64,000 nucleotides of DNA, taken from Spinacia oleracea (taxonomy: Eukaryota > Streptophyta > Magnoliopsida > Caryophyllales > Amaranthaceae). Of this stretch, positions 6,074-63,189 are shown in pieces. Within the stretch, counting starts at the first letter, position 1. Each line of letters starts with the position of its first letter. The notes beneath the pieces are model-generated. The model searched no databases, was not told the origin of the DNA, and worked only from the letters and a program-made list of their open reading frames with translations. Location: positions 105,063,157-105,127,156 of the forward strand of contig NC_079492.1 in the NCBI RefSeq assembly GCF_020520425.1, written 5' to 3'. The position numbers and the translations under genes are program-made.

Positions 6074-7413
6074 TGTTAGGTTATGATACATATGACATTA
6101 CATAGATCATGCGGAAACAACCATTAACCCAGGAAACATATTATTTACACATAATCATTTAGCATAGTTTAGATGCATACTCTTTGTTGCGTGCCTTCCC
6201 TAGCTGCGCCCGAACCGAACAAGAACAAGTCTTTTAGGACTCCAAGTGTCGTCCCTCCGTAGAAAGTCCACAGCACGTCCGGATCCGCCTTAAGATTGAC
6301 CAACTAGAATCGCCCTTAAGGTACTCAGAAAATTCGGCACTTTTGGGGCAAGATGGGTGTTTGAATTTTCTCTCAAAAAACTCACTTTTGAATACTTTGA
6401 AACTTATGTATAAATTATGACCCCTAGGCCTTTATTTATAGAGTTATGGAAAAGGAATCGTAATCCTAGTAGGATGCGAATTAATTGGAATTAGAATTCT
6501 ACATGAATTCTACTTAATCAATTTATCCAATAGGAATAGACATTTAATCATACACTGACTCTTGCAGATTCAGGAATCTCGCATGAGCTCAAACTCACAC
6601 ACACACGGCAGCCACAAGGGCTGCCCACGCATGCGAGCAGCAGCCCACGCAGCGCGGCCCACGCATGCGTGGCCTTGTGCGCGCTGGGCTGTGGCGTGCG
6701 TGCTTGCTGGGCGATGGCCTGGCTTCGTGCTGGGCCTTCGTCCGGCAGGCCTCGTCCGATGCTAATTCGTACGATACGCTTCCGATTAAAATTCCATTTC
6801 CGGAATCTATTTCCGATACGAACAATATTCAATATTTCCGATTCCGGAATTAATTTCCGTTTCGAACAAATATTTAATATTTCCGTTTCCGGAATTATTT
6901 TCCGATTCCGGTAATATTTCCGATTCTGACAATATTTCCGTTTCCGGCAATATTTCCGATTCTGGTAATATTTCCATTTCCAACAATATTTTCCGATACG
7001 TACCATGTTTCCGTTTCCGGCAACATCTACGACTTGGATAATATTCATATTTCCGATACGATCCATATTTCCGTTTCCGGCAATATCATCGTTTCCGGAG
7101 TATTCATTTCTTGCCTGTGACGATCTTAGCTCCCACTGAAACCAAGATCCGTCGGTTCCGAATATTCATAGATGGAGTATTTAATGCCATTAAATACTTG
7201 ATCCGTTTACGTACTATTTGTGTGACCCTACGGGTTCAGTCAAGAGTAAGCTGTGGATTAATATCATTAATTCCACTTGAACTGAAGCGGCCTCTAGCTA
7301 GGCATTCAGCTCACTTGATCTCACTGAATTATTAACTTGTTAATTAATACTGAACCGCATTTATTAGACTTAACATAGAATGCATACTTGGACCAAGGGC
7401 ATTATTTCCTTCA
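6074..7413 (-). repeat. 3' LTR of Copia copy 1
   Basis: 1340-bp LTR. It contains a TATA-like box (CTCTATAAATAAAGG on the minus strand, 6429-6443), a GC-rich tract (about 6590-6760) and an array of 18-bp CCGGAAACGGAAATATT-type units (about 6775-7110). Short ORFs here are repeated identically in the other LTR and are not genes. Confidence 0.96.
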
Positions 7414-8277
7414 GTCTCCCACTTGTCCTTAGGGACAAGTGTGCATTTCCTAATTCCTTTGTCGCTCGATGCTTGCTCTTGAACATAAGGTAAGAGTTGT
7501 CATCCTTATTATGTCCAGAGGTGTTCCTCGGTTTCAGAGTTCAACTGATCAAATAAACAGATAATCATAGCCTATGATTCATCCGAGCACGGCCATGCAT
7601 TTCACAGTTTCTAGCTCTCCGAGTGGCCTTGTACAACTTTTAAGCATCTCATCCCGATTTATGGGAGGACAATCCCAATCTTGCGATCTTGAGATTAGAC
7701 TTCGTTTGATAGGTGATTACCTGAGCGTTGCCTTTATAGCCTCCTTTTACGGTGCGACGGTTGGTCAACGTCAAAGCAACCAGTTCTCAAACAAGTAATC
7801 TCAAATCACTCAGGTATTGAGGATTTAGTGTCTAATAATTTAATGAAATTTACTTATGACAGACTTTCATCTCTTACAGTAAAGTTTCATAGGTCTTGTC
7901 CGATACTAGTCTTCCCAAAGTAAGTATCTATGCAAATGATTATGACATTGCCATGTCCACATAGTTCAAGAAACAGAACTACTAGTCATCTTGCATTCTA
8001 ATCGTCTAACGTTTTCTATGCGTCCAATTTTATAGAAAACTCCGACTAGGGACCATTTTCAACCTTTGACATTTAAGTTCACTTGATAGACATTTCTTAG
8101 TCACAGGACTGGTCCTGACAGTCTATCTTGAATATATCGTCAAGTTGAAGGGACTCATCATTTAATAAACCACAAATTAAATGGAAAAATGAATTCCTTT
8201 CATTTATTGTGAATGATTAACCAATAATGTTTTACAAAGATTTAAACTCTAAAACTTTAAAACATTAAACAGAGACA
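7414..8277 (-). other. 3' untranslated region and purine tract of Copia copy 1
   Basis: About 860 bp between the gag-pol stop and the 3' LTR, non-coding, ending in an ACAAGTGGGAGAC purine tract. The stretch CACTTGTCCCTAAGGACAAGTG next to it is an inverted repeat that could form a hairpin. Copia copy 2 has the same region at 59002-59864. Confidence 0.8.
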
Positions 8278-11200
8278 TCAAAGCCATTCTCCAATATGCT
8301 TGATTCCCATAGCTGCAGTGTGCGAGTTGTGCTTCGCTTGCGGCAGAGGTTTAGTTAATGGATCTGATATGTTGTCATCAGTTCCAATTTTGCTTATCTC
8401 GACTTCTTTTCTTTCAACGAACTCTCGTAGAAGGTGAAATCTACGAAGTACATGCTTGACTCTCTGGTGGTGTCTAGGCTCTTTTGCCTGTGCAATAGCT
8501 CCGTTATTATCACAATACAGGGCTATTGGTCCTTTAATGGAGGGGACTACACCAAGTTCTCCTATGAACTTCCTTAGCCATATAGCTTCCTTTGCTGCTT
8601 CATGTGCAGCAATGTACTCCGCTTCAGTTGTAGAATCCGCAATGGTGCTTTGCTTAGCACTTTTCCAGCTTACTGCTCCTCCGTTGAGGCAGAAGACAAA
8701 CCCAGACTGTGATCTGAAATCATCTTTGTCGGTTTGGAAACTTGCGTCCGTATAGCCTTTAACAATTAATTCATCATCTCCACCATAGACCAGGAAGTCA
8801 TCTTTGTGCCTTTTCAGGTACTTCAGAATATTCTTGGCAGCAGTCCAATGCGCCTCTCCTGGGTCTGACTGGTATCTGCTCGTAGCACTGAGTGCGTACG
8901 CAACATCCGGGCGTGTACATATCATAGCATACATTATTGAACCAATCAATGATGCATATGGAATCCCATTCATTCGTCTACGCTCATCAAGTGTTTTTGG
9001 GCACTGAGTCTTGCTTAGAGTCATTCCATGAGACATGGGTAGGTAGCCTCGCTTGGAGTCCGCCATCTTGAACCTATCAAGCACCTTATTGATATAAGTG
9101 CTTTGACTAAGTCCAATCATCTTTTTAGATCTATCTCTGTAAATCTTGATGCCCAATATGTACTGTGCTTCTCCTAGATCCTTCATCGAAAAACATTTCC
9201 CAAGCCAAATCTTGACAGAGTTCAACATAGGAATGTCATTTCCGATAAGCAATATGTCGTCGACATATAATACTAGGAAAGCAATTTTGCTCCCACTGAC
9301 CTTCTTGTATACACAAGATTCGTCCGCGTTCTTGATGAAACCAAAGTCACTGACTGCTTCATCAAAACGTATATTCCAGCTCCTGGATGCCTGCTTCAAT
9401 CCGTAGATTGACTTCTTTAGCTTGCATACCTTTTTAGCATTCTTTGGATCCTCAAAACCTTCAGGCTGTGTCATAAACACAGTTTCTGTTAAAACGCCGT
9501 TTAAGAAAGCAGTTTTGACATCCATCTGCCATATTTCGTAATCGTAATATGCAGCGATTGCTAACATTATTCGAATAGACTTTAGCATTGCAACTGGTGA
9601 AAAGGTTTCATCGTAATCCACACCGTGGACTTGCCTGTAACCTTTCGCAACCAATCTAGCTTTGAAAACTTCAAGTTTCCCATCCTTGTCCTTTTTCAGT
9701 TTGAAAACCCATTTGCTTCCAATGGCTTGGTAGCCATCTGGCAAATCGACCAAATCCCATACTTGGTTTTCAGACATGGAGTCTAATTCAGATTGCATGG
9801 CTTCTTGCCATTGCTTGGAGCTAGGGCTCGTCATAGCTTGCTTGTAAGTCGCAGGTTCATCACTTTCAAGTAATAGAACGTCATAGCTCTCGTTCGTCAA
9901 AATACCTAAGTACCTTTCCGGTTGAGATCTATATCTTTGCGATCTACGCGGGGTAACATTTCTAGATTGACCATGATTCTCACCAGATTCTTCTAAAGAT
10001 CTCTGAGTTTCATCCTGAATGTCATCTTGAGCATTCTCTAGAGTTTGTTGTTCGACTCGAATTTCTTCGAGGTCTACTTTTCTCCCACTTGTCATTTTGG
10101 AAATGTGATCTTTCTCCAAAAAGACACCATCTCGAGCAACAAACACTTTGTTCTCAGATGTATTGTAGAAGTAATACCCCTTTGTTTCCTTTGGATAGCC
10201 CACAAGGATACATTTGTCAGATTTTGGATGAAGTTTGTCTGAAATTAATCGTTTGACGTATACTTCACATCCCCAAATCTTAAGAAAAGACACATTTGGA
10301 GGCTTTCCAAACCATAATTCGTATGGAGTCTTTTCGACAGCTTTAGACGGAGCTCTGTTTATAGTGAGTGTAGCTGTATTTAGTGCATGTCCCCAAAATT
10401 CTAATGGAAGTTCGGCCTGACCCATCATTGACCTGACCATGTCTAGCAAGGTTCTGTTCCTCCGTTCTGACACACCGTTCCATTGTGGTGTTCCAGGAGG
10501 AGTCAATTCTGATAGAATTCCACATTCTTTCAGATGGTCATCAAATTCATAGCTCAGATATTCACCGCCTCTATCAGACCGCAGTGCCTTGATCTTCTTG
10601 CCTAATTGATTCTCTACTTCACTCTGAAATTCCTTGAATTTGTCAAAGGATTCAGACTTATGCTTCATTAGGTAGACATAACCATACCTACTGAAGTCAT
10701 CAGTGAAAGTGATAAAGTAGCTGAAACCACCTCTAGCATTTGTACTCATTGGTCCACATACATCTGTATGGATTAAACCCAATAGTTCATTTGCTCTTTC
10801 TCCAACTTTAGAGAAAGGTTGCTTTGTCATTTTGCCAAGTAAACATGATTCGCATTTACCATAATCCTCTAAGTCAAATGGTTCTAGAATTCCTTCCCTT
10901 TGAAGTCTTTCTAAGCGTTTCAAGTTTATATGGCCTAATCGACAATGCCACAGATAGGTGAGATCTGAATCATCCTTTTTGGCCTTTTTGGTATTTATGT
11001 TATATACTTGTTTGTCGTGATCTAATAAATAAAGTCCATTGACTAATCTAGCAGATCCATAAAACATCTCTTTAAAATAAAACGAACAACTATTGTCTTT
11101 TATTATAAAGGAAAATCCCTTAGCATCTAAGCAAGAAACTGAAATGATGTTTTTAGTAAGACTTGGAACATGGAAACATTCTTCCAGTTCCAAAACTAGC

Positions 11201-12243
11201 CCGGAGGGCAACGACAAATAGTATGTTCCTACAGCTAATGCAGCAATCCGTGCTCCATTTCCCACTCGTAGGTCGACTTCACCCTTGCTTAACTTTCTAC
11301 TTCTTCTTAGTCCCTGTGGATTGGAACATAAGTGTGAGCCACAACCTGTATCTAATACCCAAGAAGTTGAATTAGCAAGTATACAGTCTATAACGAAAAT
11401 ACCTGAAGATGGAACGACTGTTCCGTTCTTCTGATCTTCCTTTAGCTTCAAGCAATCTCTCTTCCAATGCCCCTTCTTCTTGCAGTAGAAGCATTCGGAT
11501 TCAGAAGTGGGTTGACTGACCTTCCTCTTTGCAGATTTGGCGCCAGTTTGCTTAGTTGGGCTGGCCTTGTTGCCACCTTTCTTAGCATTCCTCTTCTTTC
11601 CAGATTTCTTGAACTTGCCCCCACGCACCATAAGCACATCCTGCTTATCACTTTTGAGCGTCTTTTCAGCGGTCTTCAGCATACCGTGAAGCTCAGTGAG
11701 CGTTTTGTCCAGACTATTCATACTGTAGTTCAGTTTGAACTGATCATACCCGCTATGAAGAGAATGGAGGATGGTGTCTATAGCCATTTCCTGAGAAAAT
11801 TGCTGATCCAGCCGACTCATATTCTCAATGAGTCCAATCATTTTGAGAACATGTGGACTTACGGGCTCGCCTTTCTTAAGCTTGGTCTCAAGAATTTGCC
11901 TATGAGTCTCGAATCTTTCGACTCGAGCCAGATCTTGGAACATGTTCTTCAACTCACTGATGATTGTGAAAGCATCTGAGTTGATGAACGTTTTCTGCAG
12001 ATCCGCACTCATGGTGGCGAGCATTAGACATTTCACATCCTTGTTGGCATCAATCCAACGATTGAGGGCTGCCTGAGTGATCCCGTCGCCTGGAGCTTCG
12101 GGCATCGCCTCATCTAGGACATACTCCTTTTCTTCCTGCATAAGAACTATTTGCAAGTTCCTTTGCCAGTCAAGGAAGTTTTTCCCGTTCAACTTCTCCT
12201 TTTCGAGAATTGATCGAATGTTGAATGAATTGTTGTTTGCCAT
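8278..12243 (-). CDS. Copia gag-pol polyprotein, intact
   Basis: A single 1321-residue frame starting MANNNSFNIRS. An in-frame ATG lies 78 nt upstream, but its extra residues are hydrophobic and leader-like, and the internal ATG is where copy 2 also starts. Order: gag; CCHC knuckle CFYCKKKGHWKRDC; protease VLDTGCGSH; GAG-pre-integrase HCRLGHINLKR with CESCLLGK; integrase core with HTDVCGP, LRSDRGGEY and NGVSERRNRT; reverse transcriptase with WVFKLKKDKDGK, AFLNG and YVDDILLIG; RNase H with GYTDASF and STTEAEYIA. The protease, integrase, RT, RNase H order is diagnostic of Ty1/Copia. No internal stop or frameshift was found. The gag differs strongly from that of copy 2 while pol is nearly identical. 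Confidence 0.96.
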   Translation of the reverse strand: MANNNSFNIRSILEKEKLNGKNFLDWQRNLQIVLMQEEKEYVLDEAMPEAPGDGITQAALNRWIDANKDVKCLMLATMSADLQKTFINSDAFTIISELKNMFQDLARVERFETHRQILETKLKKGEPVSPHVLKMIGLIENMSRLDQQFSQEMAIDTILHSLHSGYDQFKLNYSMNSLDKTLTELHGMLKTAEKTLKSDKQDVLMVRGGKFKKSGKKRNAKKGGNKASPTKQTGAKSAKRKVSQPTSESECFYCKKKGHWKRDCLKLKEDQKNGTVVPSSGIFVIDCILANSTSWVLDTGCGSHLCSNPQGLRRSRKLSKGEVDLRVGNGARIAALAVGTYYLSLPSGLVLELEECFHVPSLTKNIISVSCLDAKGFSFIIKDNSCSFYFKEMFYGSARLVNGLYLLDHDKQVYNINTKKAKKDDSDLTYLWHCRLGHINLKRLERLQREGILEPFDLEDYGKCESCLLGKMTKQPFSKVGERANELLGLIHTDVCGPMSTNARGGFSYFITFTDDFSRYGYVYLMKHKSESFDKFKEFQSEVENQLGKKIKALRSDRGGEYLSYEFDDHLKECGILSELTPPGTPQWNGVSERRNRTLLDMVRSMMGQAELPLEFWGHALNTATLTINRAPSKAVEKTPYELWFGKPPNVSFLKIWGCEVYVKRLISDKLHPKSDKCILVGYPKETKGYYFYNTSENKVFVARDGVFLEKDHISKMTSGRKVDLEEIRVEQQTLENAQDDIQDETQRSLEESGENHGQSRNVTPRRSQRYRSQPERYLGILTNESYDVLLLESDEPATYKQAMTSPSSKQWQEAMQSELDSMSENQVWDLVDLPDGYQAIGSKWVFKLKKDKDGKLEVFKARLVAKGYRQVHGVDYDETFSPVAMLKSIRIMLAIAAYYDYEIWQMDVKTAFLNGVLTETVFMTQPEGFEDPKNAKKVCKLKKSIYGLKQASRSWNIRFDEAVSDFGFIKNADESCVYKKVSGSKIAFLVLYVDDILLIGNDIPMLNSVKIWLGKCFSMKDLGEAQYILGIKIYRDRSKKMIGLSQSTYINKVLDRFKMADSKRGYLPMSHGMTLSKTQCPKTLDERRRMNGIPYASLIGSIMYAMICTRPDVAYALSATSRYQSDPGEAHWTAAKNILKYLKRHKDDFLVYGGDDELIVKGYTDASFQTDKDDFRSQSGFVFCLNGGAVSWKSAKQSTIADSTTEAEYIAAHEAAKEAIWLRKFIGELGVVPSIKGPIALYCDNNGAIAQAKEPRHHQRVKHVLRRFHLLREFVERKEVEISKIGTDDNISDPLTKPLPQAKHNSHTAAMGIKHIGEWL

Positions 12244-15129
12244 ATTAAAAACTACAATTGAAAAGAATAAACAAATAAATAACCATTCACAGTTTCTCTT
12301 AATAAACTTAAATTCTAGCATTCATGCATAATTCAATGTTTATTAAGCATTTTATTCAAGTTATGTGTTCCGGCAGGTGTGAATAAAATGATTCCAAGAT
12401 CCTAAAATCATTGAAGAACTAAGCACAGTTTGTCGACTTAATCCTAGAACATCTTAGGTAAGCAAAAGCCTTTTGCTAATAGTCTAGAAACTATTCTTGG
12501 TTGATAGGTACGTCTAAGAACTTATTAGGTAAACCTATCGAATTTGCCACGACATAAAAGGACTCCTTACTTATATCGTTGAGTTTCACCAAAACTAACA
12601 TGTACTCACAATTATTTGTGTACCTTGCCCCTTTAGGACCAATAAGTAACACCTCGCTGAGCGAAAACTATTACTAGATTGATGTAAAGGATATCCAAGC
12701 AAGTGTATATTTTGGCATGGCACCTTTTAACTCAATTTTTTAAGTTTGGAACTTAAGGCTCTTACTATGTTGGTTAGATTTTAAGTGAACTAAAATCCTT
12801 AATCATGCAACATAATCAAGCTTTTGATCTCATGCATTTTAAGACATATTTAAAGCAATAAATAACTTAAAACATGCATAAGATATTTGTGATCTAGTAT
12901 GGCCCGACTTCATCTTGAAGCTTTGACTTCAAAGTCCGTCTTGAAAATCTCCGTGGGAGGCACCATTTTCTTCAAATAGGATAAGTTATAACTAATTACA
13001 ACTATTTGATGGTACGCAGACCATATTTGAATTGAAAAACAACTTTGGTACTTTAGACCAATTACATTCAAATTAATGGTACGCAGACCATATTTTCTAT
13101 CCTATTTGGGCCATACTAGTCACTTCATAACCTGCAAAACAGTACATATACAATATATACCATTCACCCATTCATTATCATGAATGGCCCACATAGCTGG
13201 TTAGTTAAACACATTATGCATCACGTAAACATTTGCAGCAATTAATCAAGGGCACCAATAATCTACCAATTATTCAGTCCTTATTAATTCTAATCGAGTT
13301 GTTTTAACCTTAAGGATTTGTAGACCTAATCAAGAGTTTATGACTAAAAGCACTCCCACTCAAACCAATAAATTCATATGCTTTACTAATTTTAAACATA
13401 AAATTGTATTTCTAGTCTAACCGGAAACATACAAATTTAATTAAAATTTAAAGCTCATATAAATTTATAATTGAATCCAAAAATTTAATTTTAATTTCAG
13501 TCACATTTAAATTAATTTATGATTTTAATTTTAGTAAAATAATTAGAATAAATGCCATTTATTATAATTATAATATTCAAAATTAAAATCCAAGAAATTA
13601 ATTCAAATTATTAATTTTAAAATCAATTAAAAATTACGTGAACTGAAATTTTCAAATTAAACATTCAAAACGATCTAATCGTAACGCAAACACCCTACGC
13701 GTTGCACGCCCATGGGCTGTACGCACACAGCCATTGCTGGCCATGTGCGCGCAGCCCATGCGCTCGTTGCATAGCTGCTGCTGTCCCATACGCAAGCCTC
13801 CGCACAGCGCCCACCGCACGCGAGCTATCGCTCGCAGCGCGCGCGCGTTACCGCGCTCGCTGGTGCGCGAGATCGCTCGCTGGTGCGCGCGAGCCATCGC
13901 TCGCTGGGGCGCTGCATCGCTCGCTGGCGCGCGAGATCGCGCGCTGGCGCGCGAGATCGCTCGCTGGTGCGCGCGAGCCATCGCTCGCTGGGGCGCTGCA
14001 TCGCTCGCTGGCGCGCGAGATCGCGCGCTGGCGCGCGAGATCGCTCGCTGGTGCGCGCGAGTGATGCTGGGCGCAGCGCTCGTGGCACGCGAGCTTGCGC
14101 TCGCTGCGCACGAGGCTGCGCGCTGTTGTGCGAGGCAGCGCGCGCTGTGGCGCAGCTCGCTTGCTGCCCACACGCGACTGCCTTGGCTCGCCCCTCGCCC
14201 ATGCCCATACGTTCATTGCTCGTGGCACACGACACAAGGCAGGGCTGCTGCCTTGTGCTCGTGCACTACGGCCTTGCTCATTGCATTCGTGCCGCACGGG
14301 CGACGAGCTCCCTTGCTCGTCGTCGCATGCCCGCATTATACAACACCCCTTAAGGGTAACACGAAGCGTCCATTGCTTCGCGCGTGCAAGTTATTTGAAC
14401 GAATCGCATAAAATTTAAAATTTATATTTAAAATTAATGACAAATTAATAAATAATATTAATTTCATAATTTTAGGGCGAAAAATCGAAAATTTATTATC
14501 CAATTGATTTCCGATTGATATGGATTCAAGTCTAGGTCATAAAAATTTAAAATTTATCGTAAATTTACAATTTTTTATGGTGGTTTTTAATCATAGGTTT
14601 CTAATTAAATTACAATTAATTATGAAAATCAAATTAATTCTAAATTATTCTAATTTTCAACAAATTAATCATAATTACAAATTAGATTGCATAATTAACA
14701 AGACTAGGCATTCAAACTTGTTAAACATATGCAATAGGTCAATCAAAAATTCAAGATTTATCAACAAGAATCGCAAATATTTAATTTAACATCTTAAATT
14801 TACGAAATTTTGCATTCGAAAAACTAAAACCTTCGAAAAGTCATAGTTAGGCTTCGAATTTGAGAATTCTGGGTTCGGCAGAAAAACACTATTTTTGTCA
14901 AAATTTTAGAATGCCTTTTACATGCGGAATTGACACAAAAATCACTCAATTCGGATGAGTAATGAAGAAACTGCCGAAAAACTGCGTACGTATAATTAAA
15001 TAAACGCAATTTGCAACTAATTAACAATTACGAAAATTAATCACCCCTTTTAATTCTTGCAAATTTGTAATATTTAACCATGTTCATGCAATTTAGATTA
15101 TGAAAATAATAAGGGGCTCGTGATACCAC
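12244..15129 (-). other. Long 5' leader of Copia copy 1 with primer-binding site
   Basis: About 2.9 kb untranslated leader between the 5' LTR and gag-pol. The primer-binding site TGGTATCACGAGCC (minus strand, about 15115-15128) lies one base inside the LTR. The leader is AT-rich except for a GC-rich island at about 13690-14340. A GGTACGCAGACCATATTT repeat occurs twice near 13010 and 13078. Copies 2 and 3 share the leader. Confidence 0.8.
13690..14340 (-). repeat. GC-rich hypervariable island with 84-bp tandem repeats
   Basis: About 650 bp very rich in GCGC, CGCTCGCTGG and GCGCGCGAG within otherwise AT-rich DNA. An 84-bp unit is repeated in tandem: the mark TGGTGCGCGCGAG starts at 13881, 13965 and 14049. 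Shorter subrepeats of about 20-40 bp lie inside it. All six frames are fairly open only because stop codons are rare at this composition. I do not regard the ORFs here as genes. Confidence 0.85.
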
Positions 15130-16469
15130 TGTTAGGTTATGATACATATGACATTACATAGATCATGCGGAAACAACCATTAACCCAGGAAACATATTAT
15201 TTACACATAATCATTTAGCATAGTTTAGATGCATACTCTTTGTTGCGTGCCTTCCCTAGCTGCGCCCGAACCGAACAAGAACAAGTCTTTTAGGACTCCA
15301 AGTGTCGTCCCTCCGTAGAAAGTCCACAGCACGTCCGGATCCGCCTTAAGATTGACCAACTAGAATCGCCCTTAAGGTACTCAGAAAATTCGGCACTTTT
15401 GGGGCAAGATGGGTGTTTGAATTTTCTCTCAAAAAACTCACTTTTGAATACTTTGAAACTTATGTATAAATTATGACCCCTAGGCCTTTATTTATAGAGT
15501 TATGGAAAAGGAATCGTAATCCTAGTAGGATGCGAATTAATTGGAATTAGAATTCTACATGAATTCTACTTAATCAATTTATCCAATAGGAATAGACATT
15601 TAATCATACACTGACTCTTGCAGATTCAGGAATCTCGCATGAGCTCAAACTCACACACACACGGCAGCCACAAGGGCTGCCCACGCATGCGAGCAGCAAC
15701 CCACGCAGCGCGGCCCACGCATGCGTGGCCTTGTGCGCGCTGGGCTGTGGCGTGCGTGCTTGCTGGGCGATGGCCTGGCTTCGTGCTGGGCCTTCGTCCG
15801 GCAGGCCTCGTCCGATGCTAATTCGTACGATACGCTTCCGATTAAAATTCCATTTCCGGAATCTATTTCCGATACGAACAATATTCAATATTTCCGATTC
15901 CGGAATTAATTTCCGTTTCGAACAAATATTTAATATTTCCGTTTCCGGAATTATTTTCCGATTCCGGTAATATTTCCGATTCTGACAATATTTCCGTTTC
16001 CGGCAATATTTCCGATTCTGGTAATATTTCCATTTCCAACAATATTTTCCGATACGTACCATGTTTCCGTTTCCGGCAACATCTACGACTTGGATAATAT
16101 TCATATTTCCGATACGATCCATATTTCCGTTTCCGGCAATATCATCGTTTCCGGAGTATTCATTTCTTGCCTGTGACGATCTTAGCTCCCACTGAAACCA
16201 AGATCCGTCGGTTCCGAATATTCATAGATGGAGTATTTAATGCCATTAAATACTTGATCCGTTTACGTACTATTTGTGTGACCCTACGGGTTCAGTCAAG
16301 AGTAAGCTGTGGATTAATATCATTAATTCCACTTGAACTGAAGCGGCCTCTAGCTAGGCATTCAGCTCACTTGATCTCACTGAATTATTAACTTGTTAAT
16401 TAATACTGAACCGCATTTATTAGACTTAACATAGAATGCATACTTGGACCAAGGGCATTATTTCCTTCA
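15130..16469 (-). repeat. 5' LTR of Copia copy 1
   Basis: 1340-bp LTR, same length as 6074-7413, with one substitution noted at 15699. It ends CCTAACA on the minus strand, followed by the primer site. Confidence 0.96.
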
Positions 16470-16801: not shown

Positions 16802-16974
16802 AGTGTGATAAACTGATAATTTTGAGCAGAAAATTAATGACAAAATTATATTTAATTAGCTTGATGGATGAAGAACACAAAAGGGGATAAAAGTAGTGAC
16901 TTGAGGTCACCAATCTCTAGGTTTAGTGACTTGAGGTCACCACTCTCCAAAGCCTAAGCTTTACCAAATTCTCA

Positions 16975-50962: not shown

Positions 50963-52358
50963 TGAAGGAAATAATGCCCTTGGTCCAAGTATGCATTTAA
51001 TGTTAAGTCTAATAAATGCGGTTCAGTATTAATTAACAAGTTAATAATTCAGTGAGATCAAGTGAGCTGAATGCCTAGCTAGAGGCCGCTTTAGTTCAAG
51101 TGGAATTAATGATATTAATCCACAGCTTACTCTTGACTGAACCCGTAGGGTCACACAAATAGTACGTAAACGGATCAAGTATTTAATGGAATTAAATACT
51201 CCATCTATGGATATTCGGAATCGACGGATCTTGGTTTCAGTGGGAGCTGAGATCGTCAAAGGCAAGAAATGAATACTCCGGAAACGATGATATTGCCGGA
51301 AACGGAAATATGGATCGTATCGGAAATATAAATATTATCCAACTCGTAGATGTTTCCGGAAACGGAAACATGGTACGTATAGGAAAATATAATTGGAAAT
51401 GGAAATATTGCCGGAATCGGAAATATTGCCGGAAACGGAAATATTATCAGAATCGGAAATATTATCGAAATCGGAAAATAATTCCGGAAACGGAAATATT
51501 AAATATTTGTTCGAAACGGAAATTAAATCCGGAATCGGAAATATTAAATATTGTTCGTATCGGAAATGAATTCCGGAATCGAGAATTTAATCGGAAGCGT
51601 ATCGTACGAATTAGCATCGGACGAGGCCTGCCAGACGAAGGCCCAACACGAAGCCGGGCCATCGCCCAGCAAGCCAAGCGCAACAACCACACGCCAAGCA
51701 TACGACCAGGCCTAGCGCAAAAGCCAGGCCCAGCCGAAGACTTGGGCGCGTGCGCGGACAAGACTGCGACAGTGGGCCTTGCGCCGTGCGCTCGGCGTGG
51801 GCCGCAAGGCCTGCGTGCGGGCGTGCGGTGCTTGTGCGCCACTCGTGTGTGTTACTCGGAATCCTAAGGCTACCGGGATTCGTAATATGATTAAATCTAA
51901 TCCTAATAGATAAAGTTTGTTTAATTAGAGTTCTAGTAGGATTATAATTAAATAGATTTGTATTCTAATAGGATTATAATTCCTTTCCATAAACTCTATA
52001 AATAAGTGCCTAGGGTCACATATTTACATCGAGATTTGAAGTATTCAAAGGTAAGATTTTCAAGCAAAAATCAGCCACAAACACTTGCCCTATTTAGCCG
52101 AAAATCCTAGTACCTTAAGGGCGATTCTAGTTGGTCAAGCTTAAGGCGGATCCGGACGTGCTGTGGACTATCTACGGAGGGACGACACTTGGAGTCCTAA
52201 AGACTTGTTCTTGTTCGGTTCGGGCGCAGCTAGGGAGGGCACGCTACAAAGTGTATGCATCTGAATTATGCTAAATGATTATGTGTAAATAATATGTTTC
52301 CTGGCTTTATGGTTTTTCCGCATGATTTATGTTTATTAATATGTATCATAACCTAACA
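50963..52358 (+). repeat. 5' LTR of Copia copy 2
   Basis: 1396 bp, TGAAGGAAATAA...CCTAACA, with a TATA box TATAAATA at about 51997, a GC-rich tract at about 51620-51850 and the 18-bp array. It aligns with the complement of the copy 1 LTRs except for the GC-rich tract. Confidence 0.95.
51275..51600 (+). repeat. 18-bp tandem-like array in the LTR (ATTGCCGGAAACGGAAAT)
   Basis: About 12-15 units of ATTGCCGGAAWCGGAAAT and variants, some separated by ATTAAATATT. The same array is at 60170-60500 and 62100-62430 and, inverted, at 6775-7110 and 15830-16165. It is conserved in all five Copia LTRs of the window. Confidence 0.88.
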
Positions 52359-55027
52359 GTGGTATCACGAGCCTCTTATTATTTTCATAATCTAAATTGC
52401 ATGAACATGGTTAAATTTTACAAATTTGCAAAGAATTAAAGGGGTGATTAATTTTCGTAATTAATTGCAAATTGCGTTTATTTAATTATTTGTACGCAGT
52501 TTTTCGGCAGTTTCTTCGTTACTCATCCAAATCGAGTGATTTTTGTGTCAATTCCGCATGTAAAAGGCATTCTAAAATTTTGACAAAAGAGATATTTTTC
52601 GGCCGAACCCAGAATTCCCAAATTCGAAGCCTAACTATGACTTTTCGGAGGTTTTAGTTTTTCGAACGCAAAAGTTTGTAAATTTAAGATGTTAAATTGA
52701 ATATTTGCGATTCTTGTTGATAAATCTTGAGTTTTTGATTGACCTACAGCATATGTTTAACAACTTTGAATGCCTAGACTTGTTAATTATACAACCTAAT
52801 TTGTAATTATGATTAATTTGTTGAAATTCGAATTATTTAGAATTGATTTGTTTTTCATAATTAATTAATAATTTAATTAGGTATCCATGATTAAAATCCA
52901 CCATAAGAATTGTTAATTATGTTAAATTTTTAATTTTTATGACCTAGATTTGAATCCATGTTAATCGGAAATTAATTGATTAATAAATTTTTGATTTTTC
53001 GCCCTAAAATTATGAAATTAATATGATTTATTAATTTGTCATTAATTTTGAATTAAAATTTTTAAATTTTATATAGCACGCCCATAAATCTTGCACACAC
53101 AAAGCAATGGACGCTACGTGTTACCCTTAAGGGGTGTTGTATAGTGCGGGCACGCGACGACGAGCAAGGGAGCTCGTCGCCCATGCGGTACAATGCAGCG
53201 AGCAAGGGCCATGGCACACGAGCACAAGGCAGCACGCTGCCCTTGTGTCGAGTGTTGTGCGCACAGTGGGCGAGTAGGCAAGGGCGATGTGCCAAGGCGC
53301 AAGCCAGCGAGCAGACGCGTGTGGGCAGCAAGCGTGCTGCGCCACAGCGCGCGCCCTTCCGCGCCCAGCGAAGCAAGCAGACGCGAAGCAAGCAGGCGCG
53401 ACGAGTGAGCGGGCTGCGCGTAGCGTGGCCTGTGCTTGCTGCGTTGCGTGTGGCCTGCTTGCGTGGTGTTGTACGATCGGTCGAGGGGCGTTAAGCCTCG
53501 TGCACTCGACGGGGCTTGGGCGCAATCCTAAGTGCTCGTCGTGTTACGATTGAGGCGTTTTGAATTTTAATTTGAAAATTTCAGTTCGGAAATAATTTTA
53601 ATTAATTTTAAAATTAATAATTTAAATTGTTTTCTCGGATTTTAATTTTGAATATTATAACTATTATAAATTTTTATTTATACTAATTATTTTACTAAAA
53701 TTAAACCTTGAATTAATTTAAATTCATTTAATTCAACTGAAAAATAAATAAAATAAAATGGATTCAATTATAAATTTATATGAGCTTTAAATTTTAATTA
53801 AATTTGTATGTTTCCGGTTAGACTAGAAATACATTTTTATGTTTAAAATTAGTAAAGCATATGAATTTATTGGTTTAAGTGGGAGAAATTTTAGTCATAA
53901 ACTCTTGATTAGGTCTACAAATCCTTTAAGGTTAAACAACTTGATTAGAATTAATAAGGACTGAATAATTAGTAGATTATTGGTTCCCTTGATTAATTGC
54001 TGCAAATATTTATGTGATGCATACAATGTGTTTTTACTAACCAATTATGTGGGCCATTCATAATAATGAATAGGTGAATGGTATATATTAATGTATATAT
54101 ACTGTTTTGCAGGTTATGGAGTGACTAGTATGGCCCAAATAGGATAGAAAATATGGTATGCGTACCATTAATTTGAATGTAATTGGTCTAAAGCACCAAA
54201 TTTGTTTTTCAATTCAAATATGGTCTGCGTACCATCAAATAGTTGTAATTAGTTTAATTATAGCTTATCCTATTTGAAGAAAATGGCGGCTCCCATGGTG
54301 AAATTCAAAACAAAGTTTCCAACCATTTTCAAGACGGACTTTGAAGTTGAAGCTTCAAGATGAAGTCGGGCCATACTAGATCACATTTATCTTATGCATG
54401 CTTTAAGTTATTTATTGCTTTTAAATATGTCTTAAATATGCATGAGATCGAAGCTTGATTATGTTGCATGATTAAGGATTTTAGTTCACTTAAAATCTAA
54501 CCAACATAGTAAGAGCCTTAAGTTCCAAACTTAAAAATTGAGTTAAAAGGTGCCATGCCAAAATAACACTTACTTGGATATCCTTTACATCGATCTTAGT
54601 AATAGTTTTCCGCCATAGCGAGGTGTTACTTATCGATACTAAAGGGGTAAGGTACACAAATAATTGTGAGTACATGTTAGTTTTGGTGAAACTCAACGAT
54701 ATAAGTAAGGAGTCCTTTTATGTCGTGGCAAAATCGATAGGTTTACCTAATAAGTTCTTAGACGTACCTATCAACCAAGAGTAGTTTCTAGACTATTAGC
54801 AAAAGGCTTTTGCTTACCTAAAAGATTTTAGAATTGAGTCTAAATACATAATGTGCTTAATTCTTCAATGGATTTTAGGATCTTGGAATCATTTTATTCA
54901 CACCTGCCGGAACACATAACTTGAATAAAATGCTTAATGAACATTGAATTATGCATGTATGCTAGAATTTAAGAGAAACTGTGAATGGTTATTTATTTGT
55001 TTATTCTTTTCAATTGTAGTTTTAACT
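52359..55027 (+). other. 5' leader of Copia copy 2
   Basis: Untranslated leader matching the copy 1 leader (12244-15129, inverted). A GC-rich island at about 53085-53545 occupies the same place as the island in copy 1 but has different repeats. No gene. Confidence 0.8.
53085..53545 (+). repeat. GC-rich island in the Copia copy 2 leader
   Basis: About 460 bp rich in GCGCG, GCAAGC and AGCAGGCG between AT-rich flanks. The left flank (AAGGGGTGTTGTATAGTGCG) is shared with copy 1 (complement at 14330-14352) and copy 3 (63963-63982). The interior lacks the 84-bp unit of copy 1. ORFs here are compositional. Confidence 0.75.
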
Positions 55028-58000
55028 ATGGAAAACAACAATCAAAACATCATCATGGGTTCTGAGCTTATGGTCAAGCTGAACCTAAAAAATTTTCTTG
55101 AATGGGAAGCTAAGCTAGTTGAAATAGTCAGACTCAATGGACTTGAGTATGTACTGTTACATCCCATGCCAGAGACATGACCCCTGAAAGATTTGCCTCT
55201 TGGGATGCAGATCTCAAAAAGGTTATGAGTCTCATGCTGAACAATATTCCTGATGAATGGGCTAGAAGGTTTGTAGCTTACGAACCTTTTACGCTCATCA
55301 AGAATCTGAGGGATATCTGTCGTGGAAGCACGGAGGACAGGGACCTGAACGTCCATGAGTTGATTGAATCAATGTCTGGTCTAAAGGTTAGTTCCCCCAA
55401 CAGGTGTTATAGGATGGAGGTCCAAGAAACACATGTTCAGCTCCTTCGCACTAAACAAAGGGTAGGCGTCCCACTAAGGTTCCATGTGGATCTTATGCTT
55501 TCATATTTTGATCGCCTAAGTCTGCTAGGAACACCAATAAGCGAAAGGATGACAATATCTATCTTGCTCAATTCACTGCACAGTGGGTTTGGTCGCTTCA
55601 AGCAACTATACCTAAGTGAACCAAGAGAAGAAACAGTTGCAGAATTTGTTCACCTTGTCAGAAAGGCTGAGATAATACTGGACTGTGAAGCCAAAGATTT
55701 ACTCAAGGCTAAAGGGAGACCGTTCAAGAAAGGTGGAAAGTCCAAGGGCAATGCTAAATCAAAGCAGGACAAGTCCACATCAAGCTGTCTTTATTGTGAT
55801 GGAATAGGCCATTACAAAAGAGAATGTCCAAAGCTAAAGGAAGATCAGAAGAACGGAACTGTCGTTCCATCTTCACGTATTTTCGTTATAGACTGTATAC
55901 TTGCTAATTCAAATTCTTGGGTATTAGATACAGGTTGTGGCTCACACTTATGTTCTAATTCACAGGGACTAAGAAGAAGTAGGAAGTTAAGCAAGGGTGA
56001 AGTCGACCTACGAGTGGGAAATGGAGCACGGATTGCTGCATTAGCTGTAGGAACTTATTATTTGTCGTTGCCCTCTGGGCTAGTTTTGGAACTGGAAGAG
56101 TGTTTCCATGTTCCAAGTCTTACTAAAAACATCATTTTTGTTTCTTGCTTAGATGCTAAGGGATTTTCCTTTTTAATAAAAGACAATAGTTGTTCGTTTT
56201 ATTTTAAAGAGATGTTTTATGGATCTGCTAGATTAGTCAATAGACTTTATTTATTAGATCACGACAAACAAGTTTATAACATAAATACCAAAAAGGCCAA
56301 AAAGGATGATTCATATCTCACCTATCTGTGGCATTGTCGATTAGGCCATATTAACTTGAAACGCATGGAAAGACTTCAAAAGGAAGGAATTCTAGAACCA
56401 TTTGACTTAGAGGATTATGGTAAGTGCGAATCATGTTTACTTGGCAAAATGACAAAGCAACCTTTCTCTAAAGTTGGAGAAAGAGCAACTGAACTATTGG
56501 GTTTAATCCATACAGATGTATGTGAACCAATGAGTACAAATTCTAGGGGTGGTTTAAGCTACTTTATCACTTTCACTGATGACTTCAGTAGATATGGTTA
56601 TGTCTACCTAATGAAGCATAAGTCTGAATCCTTTGACAAATTCAAGGAATTTCAGAGTGAAGTAGAGAATCAATTAGGCAAGAAGATTAAGGCACTGCGG
56701 TCTGATAGAGGCGGTGAATATCTGAGCTATGAATTTGATGACCATCTGAAAGAATGTGGAATTCTATCAGAATTGACTCCTCCTGGAACACCACATTGGA
56801 ACGGTGTGTCGGAACGGAGGAACAGAACCTTGCTAGACATGGTTAGATCAATGATGGGTCAGGTCGAACTTCCAATAGAATTTTGGGGACATGTACTAAA
56901 TACAGCCGCACTCACTATAAATAGAGCTCCGTCTAAAGCTGTTGAAAAGACTCCATATGAGTTATGGTTTGGAAAGCCTCCAAAAGTGTCTTTTCTTAAG
57001 ATTTGGGGATGTGAAGTATACGTCAAACGATTAATTTCAGACAAACTTCATCCGAAATCTGACAAATGTATCCTTGTGGGCTATCCAAAGGAAACAAAGG
57101 GGTATTACTTCTACAATACATCTGAGAACAAGGTGTTTGTTGCTCGAGATGGTATCTTTTTGGAAAAGAATCACATTTCCAAAATGACAAGTGGGAGAAA
57201 AGTAGACCTCGAAGAAATTCGAGTCGAACAACAAACTCTAGAGAATGCTCAAGATGACATTCAGAATGAAACTCAGAGATCTTTAGAAGTTTCTGGTGAG
57301 AATCATGGACAATCTAGAGATGTAACCCCGAGTAGATCGCAGAGATATAGATCTCAACCGGAAAGGTACTTAGGTATTTTGACGAACGAGAGCTATGATG
57401 TTCTATTACTTGAAAGTGATGAACCTGCGACTTACAAACAAGCTATGACGAGCCCTAGCTCCAAGAAATGGCAAGAAGCCATGCAATCTGAATTAGACTC
57501 CATGTCAGAAAACCAAGTATGGGATTTGGTCGATTTGCCAGATGGCTACCAAGCCATACGAAGCAAATGGGTTTTCAAACTGAAAAAGGACAAGGATTGG
57601 AAACTTGAAGTTTTCAAAGCTAGATTGATTGCAAAAGGTTACAGGCAAGTCCACGGTGTGGATTACGATGAAACCTTTTCACCAGTTGCAATGCTAAAAT
57701 CTATTCGGATAATGTTAGCAATCGCTGCATATTATGATTACGAAATATGGCAGATGGATGTCAAAACCGCTTTCTTAAACGGCGTTTTAACATAAACTAT
57801 GTTTATGACACAGCCTGAGGGTTTTGAGGATCCAAAGAATGCTAAAAAGGTATGCAAGCTAAAGAAATCAATCTACGGATTGAAGCAGGCATCAAGGAGC
57901 TCGAATACACGTTTTGATGAAGCAGTCAGTGACTTTGGTTTCATCAAGAACGCAGACGAATCTTGTGTATACAAGAAAGTCAGTGGGAGCAAAATTTCTT

Positions 58001-59001
58001 TTCTAGTATTATATTTCGACGACATATTGCTTATCGGAAATGACATTCCTATGTTGAACTCTGTCAAGATTTGGCTTGGGAAATGTTTTCCGATGAAGGA
58101 TCTAGGAGAAGCACAGTACATATTGGGCATCAAGATTTACAGAAATAGATCTAAAAAGATGATTGGACTTAGTCAAAGCACTTATATCAATAAGGTGCTT
58201 GATAGGTTCAAGATGGCAGACTCCAAGCGAGGCTACCTACCCATGTCTCATGGAATGACTCTAAGCAAGACTCAGTGCTCAAAAACACTTGATGAGCGTA
58301 GACGAATGAATGAGATTCCATATGCATCATTGATTGGTTCAATAATGTATGCTATGATATGTACACGCCCGGATGTTGCGTACGTACTCAGTGCTACGAG
58401 CAGATACCAGTCAGACCCAGGAGAGGCACATTGGACTGCTGCCAAGAATATTCTGAAGTACCTGAAAAGGCACAAAGATGACTTCCTGGTCTATGGTGGA
58501 GATGATGAATTAATTGTTAAAGGCTATACGGACGTAAGTTTCCAAACCGACAAAGATGATTTCAGATCACAGTCTGGGTTTGTCTTCTGCCTCAACGGAG
58601 GTGCAGTAAGCTGGAAAAGTGCTAAGCAAAGCACCATTGCGGATTCTACAACTGAAGCGGAGTACATTGCTGCACATGAAGCAGCAAAGGAAGCTATATG
58701 GCTAAGGAAGTTCATAGGTGAACTTGGTGTAGTCCCCTCCATTAAAGGACCAATAGCCCTATATTGTGATAATAACGGAGCTATTTCATAGGCAAAGGAG
58801 CCTAGACACCACCAAAGAGTCAAGCATGTACTTCGTAGATTTCACCTTCTACGAGAGTTCGTTGAAAGAAAAGAAGTCGAGATAAGCAAGATTGGAACTG
58901 ATGAAAACATATCAGATCCATTTACTAAACCTCTGCCGTAGGCGAAGCACAACTCGCACACTGCGGCTATGGGAATCAAGCATATTGGAGAATGGCTTTG
59001 A
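55028..59001 (+). pseudogene. Copia gag-pol, disabled copy with a divergent gag
   Basis: Start MENNNQNIIMGSELM at 55028. A one-base frameshift lies just before 55177, then the frame is open through gag, knuckle CLYCDGIGHYKREC, protease VLDTGCGSHLC, integrase and most of RT to TAA at 57793. It resumes to TAG at 58789 and TAG at 58939, with the natural stop at 58999. The RT box reads YFDDILLIG, where copy 1 has YVDD. From KLKEDQKNGTVV onward it is nearly identical to copy 1, but the preceding gag (about 800 bp) is only remotely similar. Not functional by itself. Confidence 0.95.
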
Positions 59002-59864
59002 TATCCTTGTTTAATGTTTTAAAGTTTTAGAGTTTAATACTTTGTAAAACATTATTGGTTAATCATTCACAATAAATGAATAGAATTCATTTTCCATTTA
59101 ATTTGTGGTTTATTAAATGATGAGTCCCTTCAAATTGACGATATATTCAAGATAGACTGTCAGGACCAGTCCTGTGACTAAGAAATGTCTATCAAGTGAA
59201 CTTGAATGTCAAAAGTTGAAAATGGTCCCTTGTCGAAGTTTTCTATAAAGATGGACGCATAGAAAACGTTAGACGACTAGAATGCAAGATGACTAGTAGT
59301 TCTGTTTCTTGAACTATGTGGACATGGCAATGTCATAATCATTTGCATAGATACTTACTTTGGGAAGACTAGTATCGGACAGACCTATGAAACTTTACTG
59401 TAAGAGATGAAAATCTGTCATAAGTAAATTTCATTAAAATTATTAGACACTAAATCCTCAATACTTGAGTGATTTGAGATTACTTGTTTGAGAACTGGTT
59501 ACTTTGACGTTGACCAACCGTCGCACCGTAAAAGGAGGCTATAAAGGCAACGCTCAGGTAATCACCTATCAAACGAAGTCTAATCTCAAGATCGCAAGAT
59601 TGGGATTGTCCTCCCATAAATCAGGATGAGATGCTTAAAAGTTGTACAAGGCCACTCGGAGAGCTAGAAACTGTAAAATGCATGGCCGTGCTCAGATGAA
59701 TCATAGGCTATGATTATCTGTTTATTTGATCAGTTGAACTCTGAAACCGAGAAACACCTCTGGACGTAATAAGGATGACAACTCTTACCTTATGTTTAAG
59801 AGCAAGCATCGAGCGACAAAGGAATTAGGAAATGCACACTTATCCCTAAGGACAAGTGGGAGAC
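59002..59864 (+). other. 3' untranslated region and purine tract of Copia copy 2
   Basis: The counterpart of 7414-8277 in copy 1, ending in ACAAGTGGGAGAC directly before the LTR. No gene. Confidence 0.8.
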
Positions 59865-61259
59865 TGAAGGAAATAATGCCCTTGGTCCAAGTATGCATTT
59901 AATGTTAAGTCAAATAAATGCGGTTCTGTATTAATTAACAAGTTAATAATTCAGTGAGATCAAGTGAGCTGAATGCCTAGCTAGAGGCCGCTTCAGTTCA
60001 AGTGGAATTAATGATATTAGTCCACAACTTACTCTTGACTGAACCCTTAGGGTCACACAAATAGTACGTAAACGGATCAAGTATTTAATGGAATTAAATA
60101 CTCCATCTATGGATATTCGGATTTGACGGATCTTGGTTTCAGTGGGAGCTGAGATCGTCAAAGGCAAGAAATGAATACTCCGGAAACGATGATATTGCCG
60201 GAAACGGAAATATGGATCGTATCAGAAATATAAATATTATCCAACTCGTAGATTTTGCCGGAAACGGAAACATGGTACGTATCGGAAAATATTATTGGAA
60301 ATGGAAATATTGTCGGAATCGGAAATATTGCCGGAAACGGAAATATTATCAGAATCGGAAATATTATCGAAATCGGAAAATAATTCTGGAAACGGAAATA
60401 TTAAATATTTGTTCGAAACGGAAAATAAATCCGGAATCGGAAATATTAAATATTGTTCGTATCGGAAATGAATTCCGGAATCTAGAATTTAATCGGAAGC
60501 GTATCGTACGAATTAGCATCGGACGAGGCCTGCCAGATGAAGGCCCAACACGAAGTCGGGCCTTCGCCCAGCAAGCCAAGCGAACAACCACACGCCAAGC
60601 ATACGACCAGGCCCAGAGCAAAAGCCAGGCCCAGCCGAAGACTTGGGCGCTCGCGCGGACAAAGCTGCGACAGTGGGCCTTGCGCTGTGCGCTCGGCGTG
60701 GGCCGCAAGGCCTGCGTGCGGGCGTGCGGTGCTTGTGCGCCACTCGTGTGTGTTACTCGGAATCCTAAGGCTACCGGGATTCGTAATATGATTAAATATA
60801 ATCCTAATAGATAAAGTTTGTTTAATTAGAGTCCTAGTAGGATTATAATTAAATAGATTTGTATTCTAATAGGATTATAATTCCTTTCCATAAACTCTAT
60901 AAATAAGTGCCTAGGGTCACATATTTACATCGAGATTTGAAGTATTCAAAGGTAAGATTTTCAAGCAAAAATCAGCCACAAACACTTGCCCTATTTAGCC
61001 GAAAATCCTAGTACCTTAAGGGCAATTCTAGTTGGTCAAGCTTAAGGCGGATCCGGACGTGCTGTGGACTATCTACGGAGGGACGACACTTGGAGTCCTA
61101 AAGAATTGTTCTTGTTCGGTTCGGGTGCAGCTAGGGAGGGCACTCTATAAAGTGTATGCATCTGAATTATACTAAATGATTATGTGTAAATAATATGTTT
61201 CCTGGCTTTATGGTTTTTCCGCATGATTTATGTTTATTCATATATATCATAACCTAACA
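59865..61259 (+). repeat. 3' LTR of Copia copy 2
   Basis: 1395 bp. It begins TGAAGGAAATAATGCCC and ends CCTAACA. Scattered substitutions relative to 50963-52358. Confidence 0.95.
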
Positions 61260-61786: not shown

Positions 61787-63189
61787 TGAAGGAAATAATT
61801 CCCTTGGTCCAAGTATGCATTTAATGATAATTCTAATAAATGCGGTTCAGTATTAATTATGCAAGTTAATAATTCAGTGAGATCAAGTGAACTGAATGCC
61901 TAGCTAGAGGCCGCTTCAGTTCAAGTGGATTAATGATATTAATCCACAACTTTCTCTTGACTGAACCCGTTGGGTCACACAAATAGTACGTAAACGGATC
62001 AAGTATTTAATGGCATTAAATACTCTATCTAATCAATATTCGGAATCGACGGATCTTGGTTTCAGTGGGAGCTGAGATCGTCAAAGGCAAATAAATGAAT
62101 ACTCCGGAAACGATGATATTGTCGGAAACGGAAATATGGATCGTATCGAAAATATAAATATTATCCAAGTTGTAGATTTGCCGGAAACGGAAACATGGTA
62201 CGTATCGGAAAATATTATCGGAAATGGAAATATTGCCGGAATCGGAAATATTGCCGGAAACAGAAATATTATCAGAATCGGAAATATTATCGGAATCGGA
62301 AAATAATTCCAGAAACGGAAATATTAAATATTTGTTCGAGACGGAAATTAATTCCGGAATCGGAAATGTTAAATATTGTTCGTATCGGAAATGAATTCCG
62401 GAATCGGGAAATTAATCGGAAGCGCATCGTACGAATTAGCATCGGACGAGCTTGCTAGACGAAGGCCTAGCACGAAGCCAGGCCCACGTCCAGCAAGGGA
62501 ACCGCGCGCCACAAACACGCCCAGCCCAAGGCTGCGCTAGGCCCACCGCAAGGCAGGCCCAGCGCGCACCCAAGGTTGCGGCAACTCGTGGGCTTCGTGG
62601 CGATTGGGATGCGTTGCTCGGGCTGCGCGCGCGCGCATGGCGCCACTCGTGGGCTACTGTGCGTGCTTGTGTGTTTGTGTTCACTTACGAAACCTAAAAC
62701 GTATAGGATTCGATTGATGATTAAATTTCTAATCCTAAAAGATAAATTAATTAAATAAGAGTTCTACTAGGATTCTAATTTAATTAATTCGTATCCTAGT
62801 AGGATTCGATTACTTATTCCATGGCCTATAAATATGAGTTCAAGGCTCATAATTTACAACGAGTTTGAAGTATTCAAAGGTAAGAATTTGAGCAAAAATG
62901 CAGCTATACACTTGCCCACAAATAGCCGAATAAATTAGTACCTTTAAGGGCGATTCTAGTTGGTCAATCTTAAGGCGGATCCGGACGTGCTGTGGACTTC
63001 CTACGGAGGGACGACACTTGGAGTCCTAAAGACTTGTTCTTGTTCAGTTCGGGCGCAACAAGGGAGGGCACGCTAAAAAGAGTATGCATCCTAATTATGC
63101 TAATTGTTATGTGGCAATTAATTTGGAATCCTGGCATTTATGGTTTTTCCGCATGATTTATATTCGTTTATATGTATCATAACCTAACA
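61787..63189 (+). repeat. 5' LTR of Copia copy 3
   Basis: 1403 bp with the 18-bp array at about 62100-62430, a GC-rich tract at about 62450-62660 that differs from those of copies 1 and 2, and a TATA-like CCTATAAATATG at about 62825-62836. Confidence 0.92.

What the first reader, a model, noticed from the sequence alone, without database searches (positions are those of the whole stretch)
11451..12243. Gag module swapped between two copies of one Copia family
Copies 1 and 2 are nearly identical in pol, in the last leader bases before the start codon and in the 3' region, yet the gag segment (11451-12243 in copy 1; 55028-55830 in copy 2) shares only short motifs. The change begins at the start codon and ends just after the CCHC knuckle, at KLKEDQKNGTVV. 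Seen directly: the two sharp boundaries. Inferred: one lineage acquired a foreign gag by template switching during reverse transcription, giving a capsid with a different packaging range.
Basis: partly seen in the sequence, partly recalled or inferred. Interest (0 to 1): 0.75.

Follow-up and report, generated by a model that had tools for sequence, protein, structure and literature searches.

The report
Two capsid genes, one jumping-gene family
A plant retrotransposon family carries either of two very different capsid (gag) genes in an otherwise near-identical body, and the two capsid genes appear to be shuffled among bodies by recombination, so this looks like a standing two-version polymorphism rather than one odd swap.

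Summary
Copies 1 and 2 are about 96% identical in pol, but their gags share 52% of DNA and about 30% of protein, with sharp edges at the first gag codons and just after the CCHC knuckle. The host genome (894 Mb, unnamed) shows that it is not one swap. A gag-1 junction 30-mer occurs at 5687 exact places and the gag-2 one at 2465, together 97.8% of 8334 places with the common pol start. In map-order samples of 20 + 20 sites all carried the expected gag, 0 of 40 were hybrids, and 12/20 and 14/20 gag frames were uninterrupted. Pol trees mix the types (one clade rejected, AU p 5e-12 to 0.013); in the map-order samples common pol SNPs are nearly independent of gag type. One gag-1 and one gag-2 copy share 99.68% of 1550 nt of pol. 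Best reading: two old gag alleles in one recombining pool, exchanged as blocks because homology ends at gag. Known relatives: yeast Ty1/Ty1', wheat RLG_Quinta A/B. New: a Copia family with pol, deeper gag divergence, thousands of copies, near-free assortment. Packaging range untested.

The parts
6074..16469 (-). Copy 1: complete LTR retrotransposon, LTRs 6074-7413 and 15130-16469, 5-bp target duplication TATTC
   Evidence: LTRs differ at 1 of 1341 aligned positions (K2P 0.0007)
11449..12243 (-). gag type 1 (265 codons; Retrotran_gag_2 and CCHC)
   Evidence: 40 of 40 scored genome places at 100% identity (876 first-look candidates)
8281..11448 (-). pol of copy 1 (Pol_BBD, gag_pre-integrs, integrase, RVT_2), uninterrupted
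50963..61259 (+). Copy 2: LTRs about 50963-52358 and 59865-61259, 5-bp target duplication AAGGT
   Evidence: LTR K2P 0.028
55028..55830 (+). gag type 2; broken in this copy (first stop at codon 51; reading frame shifts near 55171-55177)
   Evidence: unbroken relatives P0065/P0066
55831..58998 (+). pol of copy 2, three premature stops
   Evidence: 95.6% protein identity to copy 1 pol over 1056 aa
12244..12320 (-). last leader bases before gag, common to both types (T-rich tract, TTGTAG)
15375..15758 (-). middle of the LTR (TATA region) of copy 1, approximate limits: hypervariable block; counterpart in copy 2 about 51674-52115
61787..64000 (+). Copy 3, cut by the window end: LTR 61787-63189 and start of leader; no gag inside the window

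Best explanation
One Copia family (probably Angela lineage) exists in the host as a recombining pool with two old gag alleles. Copies of both types share LTR ends, the end of the leader and pol because those parts recombine. The two gags are too different for homologous strand transfer, so gag moves as one block whose edges are the first homologous bases on either side. The likeliest route is template switching by reverse transcriptase between gag-1 and gag-2 RNAs packaged in one particle, followed by integration of the recombinant as a complete element. Shown: the two types, their edges, their abundance, the mixing with pol in the sampled copies. Inferred: that the switch happens during reverse transcription, that RNAs of both types are co-packaged, and why both alleles persist.
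For: Exact whole-genome counts of junction 30-mers: gag 1 5687, gag 2 2465, of 8334 places with the common 27-mer; backwards controls 0. Map-order samples: 20 of 20 and 20 of 20 carry the expected gag; 0 of 40 are gag-1/gag-2 hybrids at 100-nt resolution, and 2 of 40 have a first part of gag matching neither. Pol tree, 1550 nt, 48 rows (27 gag 1, 21 gag 2): 6 label changes, at least 3 forced by well-supported branches, gag 1 as one clade rejected p 2.65e-6; map-order rows only (18 + 6): 6 changes against 5.6 in shuffles, gag 2 as one clade rejected p 5e-12. First 400 nt, 40 rows: 11 changes against about 13.6 shuffled, p 0.013. Six common SNPs in the first 400 nt (38 rows) have r2 of at most 0.04 with gag type. 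Of 14 transversion sites among 48 rows 11 show all four combinations at least twice; in the 24 map-order rows all 10 transversion sites show all four at least once, r2 at most 0.07. Closest pair: pol 99.68% over 1550 nt, gag 50.3%. Intact ends and target duplications of copies 1 and 2 show whole-element insertion.
Against: Assortment is not complete everywhere: in the 48-row set, which holds similarity-ranked copies, labels are clustered (6 changes against 15.8 in shuffles, 0 of 500 as low; transversion r2 0 to 0.56), and in the ranked set gag 1 formed one pol clade (100/100), so bursts are clonal. The bootstrap had not settled. Gene conversion between integrated copies would leave similar patterns.
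Confidence: 0.82

Rival explanations
1. One lineage acquired a foreign gag in a single event; afterwards the two lineages evolved apart.
For: Sharp edges; the gag-1 copies most like copy 1 form one pol clade and labels are clustered in the ranked set; gag 1 is the type found in other plants.
Against: Both types occur in the same supported pol clades; one-clade trees rejected; four combinations at transversion sites.
Confidence: 0.06
2. The mixing is made by gene conversion between integrated DNA copies, not during reverse transcription.
For: Thousands of similar copies lie in one genome; conversion would also stop at non-homologous gag.
Against: Copy 1 is a very recent insertion (1 LTR difference), which leaves little time for conversion in place, though conversion in an ancestor is not excluded. 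Recombination during transposition bursts is reported for ONSEN (PMC5668417, title and passages).
Confidence: 0.15
3. Gag 2 is gag 1 after very fast evolution (relaxed or positive selection).
For: The gag tree places gag 2 beside gag 1 (96/97), and copy 1 is its nearest relative in 4 of 4 column sets.
Against: Branch of 3.84 changes per site against 0.04 between the pols; gag-pol residual -41.5 points, z -8.4, against 595 other pairs; no graded intermediates in 40 sampled copies; the placement is not decisive: 24 of 63 positions not rejected on all columns, 40 of 63 on the capsid part.
Confidence: 0.02
4. Assembly or nesting artefact.
For: High-copy repeats are prone to misassembly.
Against: Thousands of places per type, and database proteins with gag 2 joined to the same pol start (P0065) and to the same leader (P0066).
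Confidence: 0.01

Closest known systems
Saccharomyces Ty1 and Ty1' (PMC7055915; abstract and passages read)
   Same: A Copia-type family with two gag types on a shared, recombining body; gag and pol trees disagree.
   Different: The paper reports 93 amino-acid differences and three indels between the reconstructed ancestral Ty1 and Ty1' Gags; here the two share only about 30% protein identity. The Ty1 case is explained by horizontal transfer from S. paradoxus; here the donor is unknown. Thousands of copies here.
RLG_Quinta A and B of einkorn wheat (PMC11302176; passages read)
   Same: Gag DNA identity about 65% inside flanks above 90%, read by the authors as recombination involving gag.
   Different: A centromeric element described as non-autonomous (no RT or integrase); here a Copia element with pol, and assortment is tested copy by copy.
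Athila Va-rec of Arabidopsis (PMC2410132; passages read)
   Same: Recombinant LTR elements detected from disagreement of gag, pol and env trees.
   Different: Four events between families, including a gag of mixed origin; here no mixed gag in 40 sampled copies.
BARE1/BARE2 of barley (PMC3735527; abstract and passages read)
   Same: Listed under Angela (PMC6317226, passages); two subfamilies whose RNAs share a particle, which makes template switching possible.
   Different: BARE2 cannot make Gag; here both types have uninterrupted gag frames in more than half of the sampled copies (12 of 20, 14 of 20).

Membership tests
Ty1/Copia LTR retrotransposon | Integrase before reverse transcriptase; LTRs, 5-bp target duplication | tested here: met
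   Integrase core 515-612, RVT_2 852-1096 in P0001; LTRs and TATTC / AAGGT duplications
Angela lineage | RT/integrase phylogeny with Angela reference elements | not tested
   No labelled references at hand; the name rests on recalled resemblance of LTR start, long LTR and leader. Angela is reported as the dominant Copia lineage of spinach (PMC6337768, passages), and the host is only inferred to be spinach
Gag dimorphism of the Ty1/Ty1' kind | Near-identical pol with divergent gag and discordant trees | tested here: met
Gag dimorphism of the Ty1/Ty1' kind | Self-encoded restriction factor from gag (p22) | not testable with these tools
   No expression data
Gag dimorphism of the Ty1/Ty1' kind | Donor species identified | tested here: inconclusive
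   Gag 2 gave no relative but P0065/P0066 in word-based protein searches and none in viral contigs or in the bacterial/archaeal genome contigs; no other plant genome was searchable
RLG_Quinta-like non-autonomous partner | Lacks RT and integrase | tested here: not met
   The pol start follows gag 2 in 30 of 30 ranked loci (copy 2 is one of them); 22 of 30 keep at least 95% identity to copy 2 over 1400 nt, 8 are interrupted or diverged
Retroviral-type capsid fold | Both gags fold like known Copia/Ty1 capsids | tested here: inconclusive
   Best PDB hit for both is the Drosophila copia capsid 8vvw (E 8.8e-6 for gag 1; 1.3e-3 with low TM 0.29-0.45 for gag 2; Ty1' C-terminal domain E 0.19 for gag 2); mean pLDDT 78 and 76; the gag-2 alignment included gag-1-type rows

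The most novel reading that the evidence does not exclude
The two gags are a balanced polymorphism of the retrotransposon population: each is favoured when rare (escape from silencing aimed at the commoner gag, or from Gag-based self-restriction as in Ty1), while recombination keeps pol, leader end and LTR ends common to both. The family would behave like a sexual population with two capsid types.
Probability: 0.28. Interest if true: 0.82.

Novelty: new variant of a known kind. Interest (0 to 1): 0.6.

Why it matters
It shows, copy by copy, that a plant Copia family can keep two deeply different capsid genes on one recombining body, in several layers of its pol tree. That makes testable why capsid diversity persists in transposons (self-restriction, silencing escape or drift) and warns that families defined by pol or LTR can hide different capsids.

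Tried and rejected
Gag-2 relatives in viral contigs and genome contigs: 26 and 27 pattern hits, none confirmed; gag 1 in viral contigs: 5 pattern hits, none confirmed; pol there: no pattern hit. Gag-2 protein search at 480-1526 aa: none of 651 candidates; at 165-525 aa: 2 of 249, P0065 and P0066. Rfam at gathering scores: nothing; tRNA scan: nothing. Considered and dropped: a single recent swap; fast gag evolution; an artefact; recurrent C-to-T change as cause of the mixing (transversions show the same). My first reading, that gag 1 is a young lineage on a gag-2 body, was withdrawn after the map-order samples. A third gag type: 8152 of 8334 common 27-mers are preceded by one of the two junction codons; the other 182 were not examined. 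The gag-1 5' junction count did not complete. Print: the listings showed me no report of this dimorphism in spinach or in a plant Copia family; that covers only the held open-licence library, and I read passages of seven papers only.

Full report
What is there. Copy 1 (minus strand) and copy 2 (plus strand) are complete LTR retrotransposons with LTRs of about 1.34 and 1.40 kb, leaders of about 2.9 and 2.7 kb and gag followed by pol in one frame in copy 1; each is flanked by its own 5-bp target duplication. With a recalled rate of 1.3e-8 per site per year, LTR divergence gives about 0.03 million years for copy 1 and 1.1 for copy 2 (K2P 0.0007 and 0.028). A third copy begins at 61787 and is cut by the window end.

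The observation. Pol, 3' region and the first half of the LTR are 96.2% identical over 4773 nt. In 60-nt windows identity falls from 93% to 60% across the gag ATG, stays at 37-70% through gag and returns through 85% to 97% at KLKEDQ. Gag DNA identity is 51.6% against 41.8% (sd 1.7) in 60 codon shuffles; protein identity is 28-34% depending on the alignment. Gag 1 matches Pfam Retrotran_gag_2 (E 4e-10); the gag-2 piece only weakly (E 0.006, below the curated cut-off). Pol dN is 0.020 and dS 0.086-0.099 over 654 codons.

How odd that is. In 595 pairs of related polyproteins gag identity follows pol identity (r 0.74, residual sd 4.9 points, lowest -13.2); the copy 1/copy 2 pair lies at -41.5. That set was collected by similarity to gag 1, so it would miss pols with other gags. 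The pol tree puts copies 1 and 2 and P0002 together (100/100, branches within the clade 0.04 or less). The gag tree puts gag 2 beside gag 1 (96/97), but on a branch of 3.84; other placements are often not rejected: 24 of 63 on all columns, 40 of 63 on the capsid part. The age and source of gag 2 therefore stay open.

Not a private accident of copy 2. The protein database holds P0065 and P0066 (clusters of 17 and 18 members) with an unbroken gag 2; P0065 runs into the same pol start and P0066 is preceded by the same leader.

The host genome. It has 894,210,420 bases in 242 contigs, with the window on C6; C1 to C6 are 115-189 Mb each. That fits spinach as I recall it, which is an inference. Similarity-ranked searches first misled me: 40 of 40 scored gag-1 places were identical to copy 1, the 39 scored gag-2 places other than copy 2 were 96-97%, and in that set gag 1 looked like one young pol clade (9 of 37 loci dropped for short pol). 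Exact counts then gave 5687 gag-1 and 2465 gag-2 3' junction 30-mers among 8334 common pol starts and 2794 gag-2 5' junctions. The lists run in map order, which gave samples not chosen by similarity: 20 gag-1 and 20 gag-2 sites from the first ~5 Mb of C1, 40 of 40 with the expected gag. Gag-1 copies there are 87 to 99.9% identical to copy 1; gag-2 copies are 93 to 96% identical to copy 2 and 87.6 to 99.3% to each other.

Assortment. In the first 400 nt of pol (40 rows; L061 and L070 dropped) gag labels need 11 changes against about 13.6 in shuffles (42 to 65 of 500 shuffles as low), and one clade is rejected at p 0.013 (the bootstrap had not settled). In 1550 nt (48 rows; 9 dropped, and 8 of the 29 ranked gag-2 loci never entered because they lack the exact anchor) there are 6 changes, at least 3 forced, p 2.65e-6. 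Labels are clustered in this set (15.8 changes in shuffles, 0 of 500 as low), which contains clonal, similarity-ranked copies; in the 24 map-order rows (18 + 6) there are 6 changes against 5.6 shuffled and p 5e-12. One supported pol clade (100/99) holds 16 gag-2 and 3 gag-1 copies with longer end branches, another (100/98) 13 gag-1 and 1 gag-2 copy with short ones; I call them old and young from branch lengths, not from LTR dates. Six common SNPs in the first 400 nt have r2 of at most 0.04 with gag type, while the last leader bases before the ATG keep some association, 0.15-0.27. Because C-to-T decay could imitate mixing I repeated this with transversions: 11 of 14 sites show all four combinations at least twice in 48 rows, with r2 from 0 to 0.56 in that ranked set; in the map-order rows all 10 sites show all four at least once and r2 is at most 0.07 (transitions printed there: up to 0.17). 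One pair differs at 5 of 1550 pol positions and shares 50.3% of gag. No gag-1/gag-2 hybrid was seen in 40 copies at 100-nt resolution. Gag frames are uninterrupted in 12 of 20 gag-1 and 14 of 20 gag-2 copies.

Mechanism. Because crossovers need homology, an exchange that spans gag from leader to pol carries gag along as a block, and repeated exchange randomises the flanks while the edges stay fixed. Template switching between co-packaged RNAs fits: BARE2 RNA is packaged in BARE1 particles (PMC3735527, abstract and passages) and ONSEN copies recombine during bursts (PMC5668417, title and passages). DNA gene conversion is not excluded. Why both alleles persist is unknown; self-restriction by Gag, as described for Ty1 (PMC7055915, abstract and passages), or escape from silencing are candidates, and drift in a large pool is the plain alternative.

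Other variable blocks. The LTR middle, with the TATA region, is only 61-83% identical between ten gag-2 copies and the reference copies copy 2 and L047, although the LTR 5' part is 92-97% and the 3' part 88-100%; in seven gag-1 copies it is 95-99% to copy 1 (8 gag-1 and 12 gag-2 stretches fetched; L049 and L054 gave no LTR and L043 failed to align). The leader middle also differs between copies 1 and 2. So the family has a conserved body with variable promoter, leader segment and capsid.

Verdict. The finding is real, and wider than stated: a two-allele capsid polymorphism in a recombining Copia family. The kind is known from yeast and from wheat centromeric elements; the depth, scale and near-free assortment in a Copia family with pol are the new part.

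Noticed in passing
Copy 1 15375-15758, copy 2 51674-52115, and L047-L058: The LTR promoter region is hypervariable (61-83% between gag-2 copies and two reference copies) inside LTRs whose 5' part is 92-97% identical; origin and function unexplained.
   Followed up: partly
13854-14061 (copy 1 leader); about 53354-53543 (copy 2): Copy 1 leader holds GC-rich 84-bp tandem repeats (2.5 copies, 98% match); no such array was listed in the copy 2 leader.
   Followed up: no
12244-12290 (minus strand), 54984-55027: A T-rich tract ending in TTGTAG directly before the gag ATG resembles a plant 3' splice site (recalled motif); no transcript data.
   Followed up: no
4543-4834 and 16804-18314: A ~290-bp direct duplication flanks copy 1; its right-hand copy is split by a 1.2-kb LINE-like piece (RNase H frame 17055-17939 minus) with a 17-bp target duplication and a T run.
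   Followed up: partly
18527-23901: Broken LINE: DUF4283 and CCHC, endonuclease, reverse transcriptase and RNase H in four separate frames.
   Followed up: no
28956-30446 (minus): Probable host gene: FtsH-like AAA protease exons.
   Followed up: no
P0065, positions about 105-130: Gag 2 has an insertion of about 26 residues, absent from gag 1 and from the 5 other plant gags aligned with them, predicted to interrupt a long capsid helix with low confidence.
   Followed up: partly
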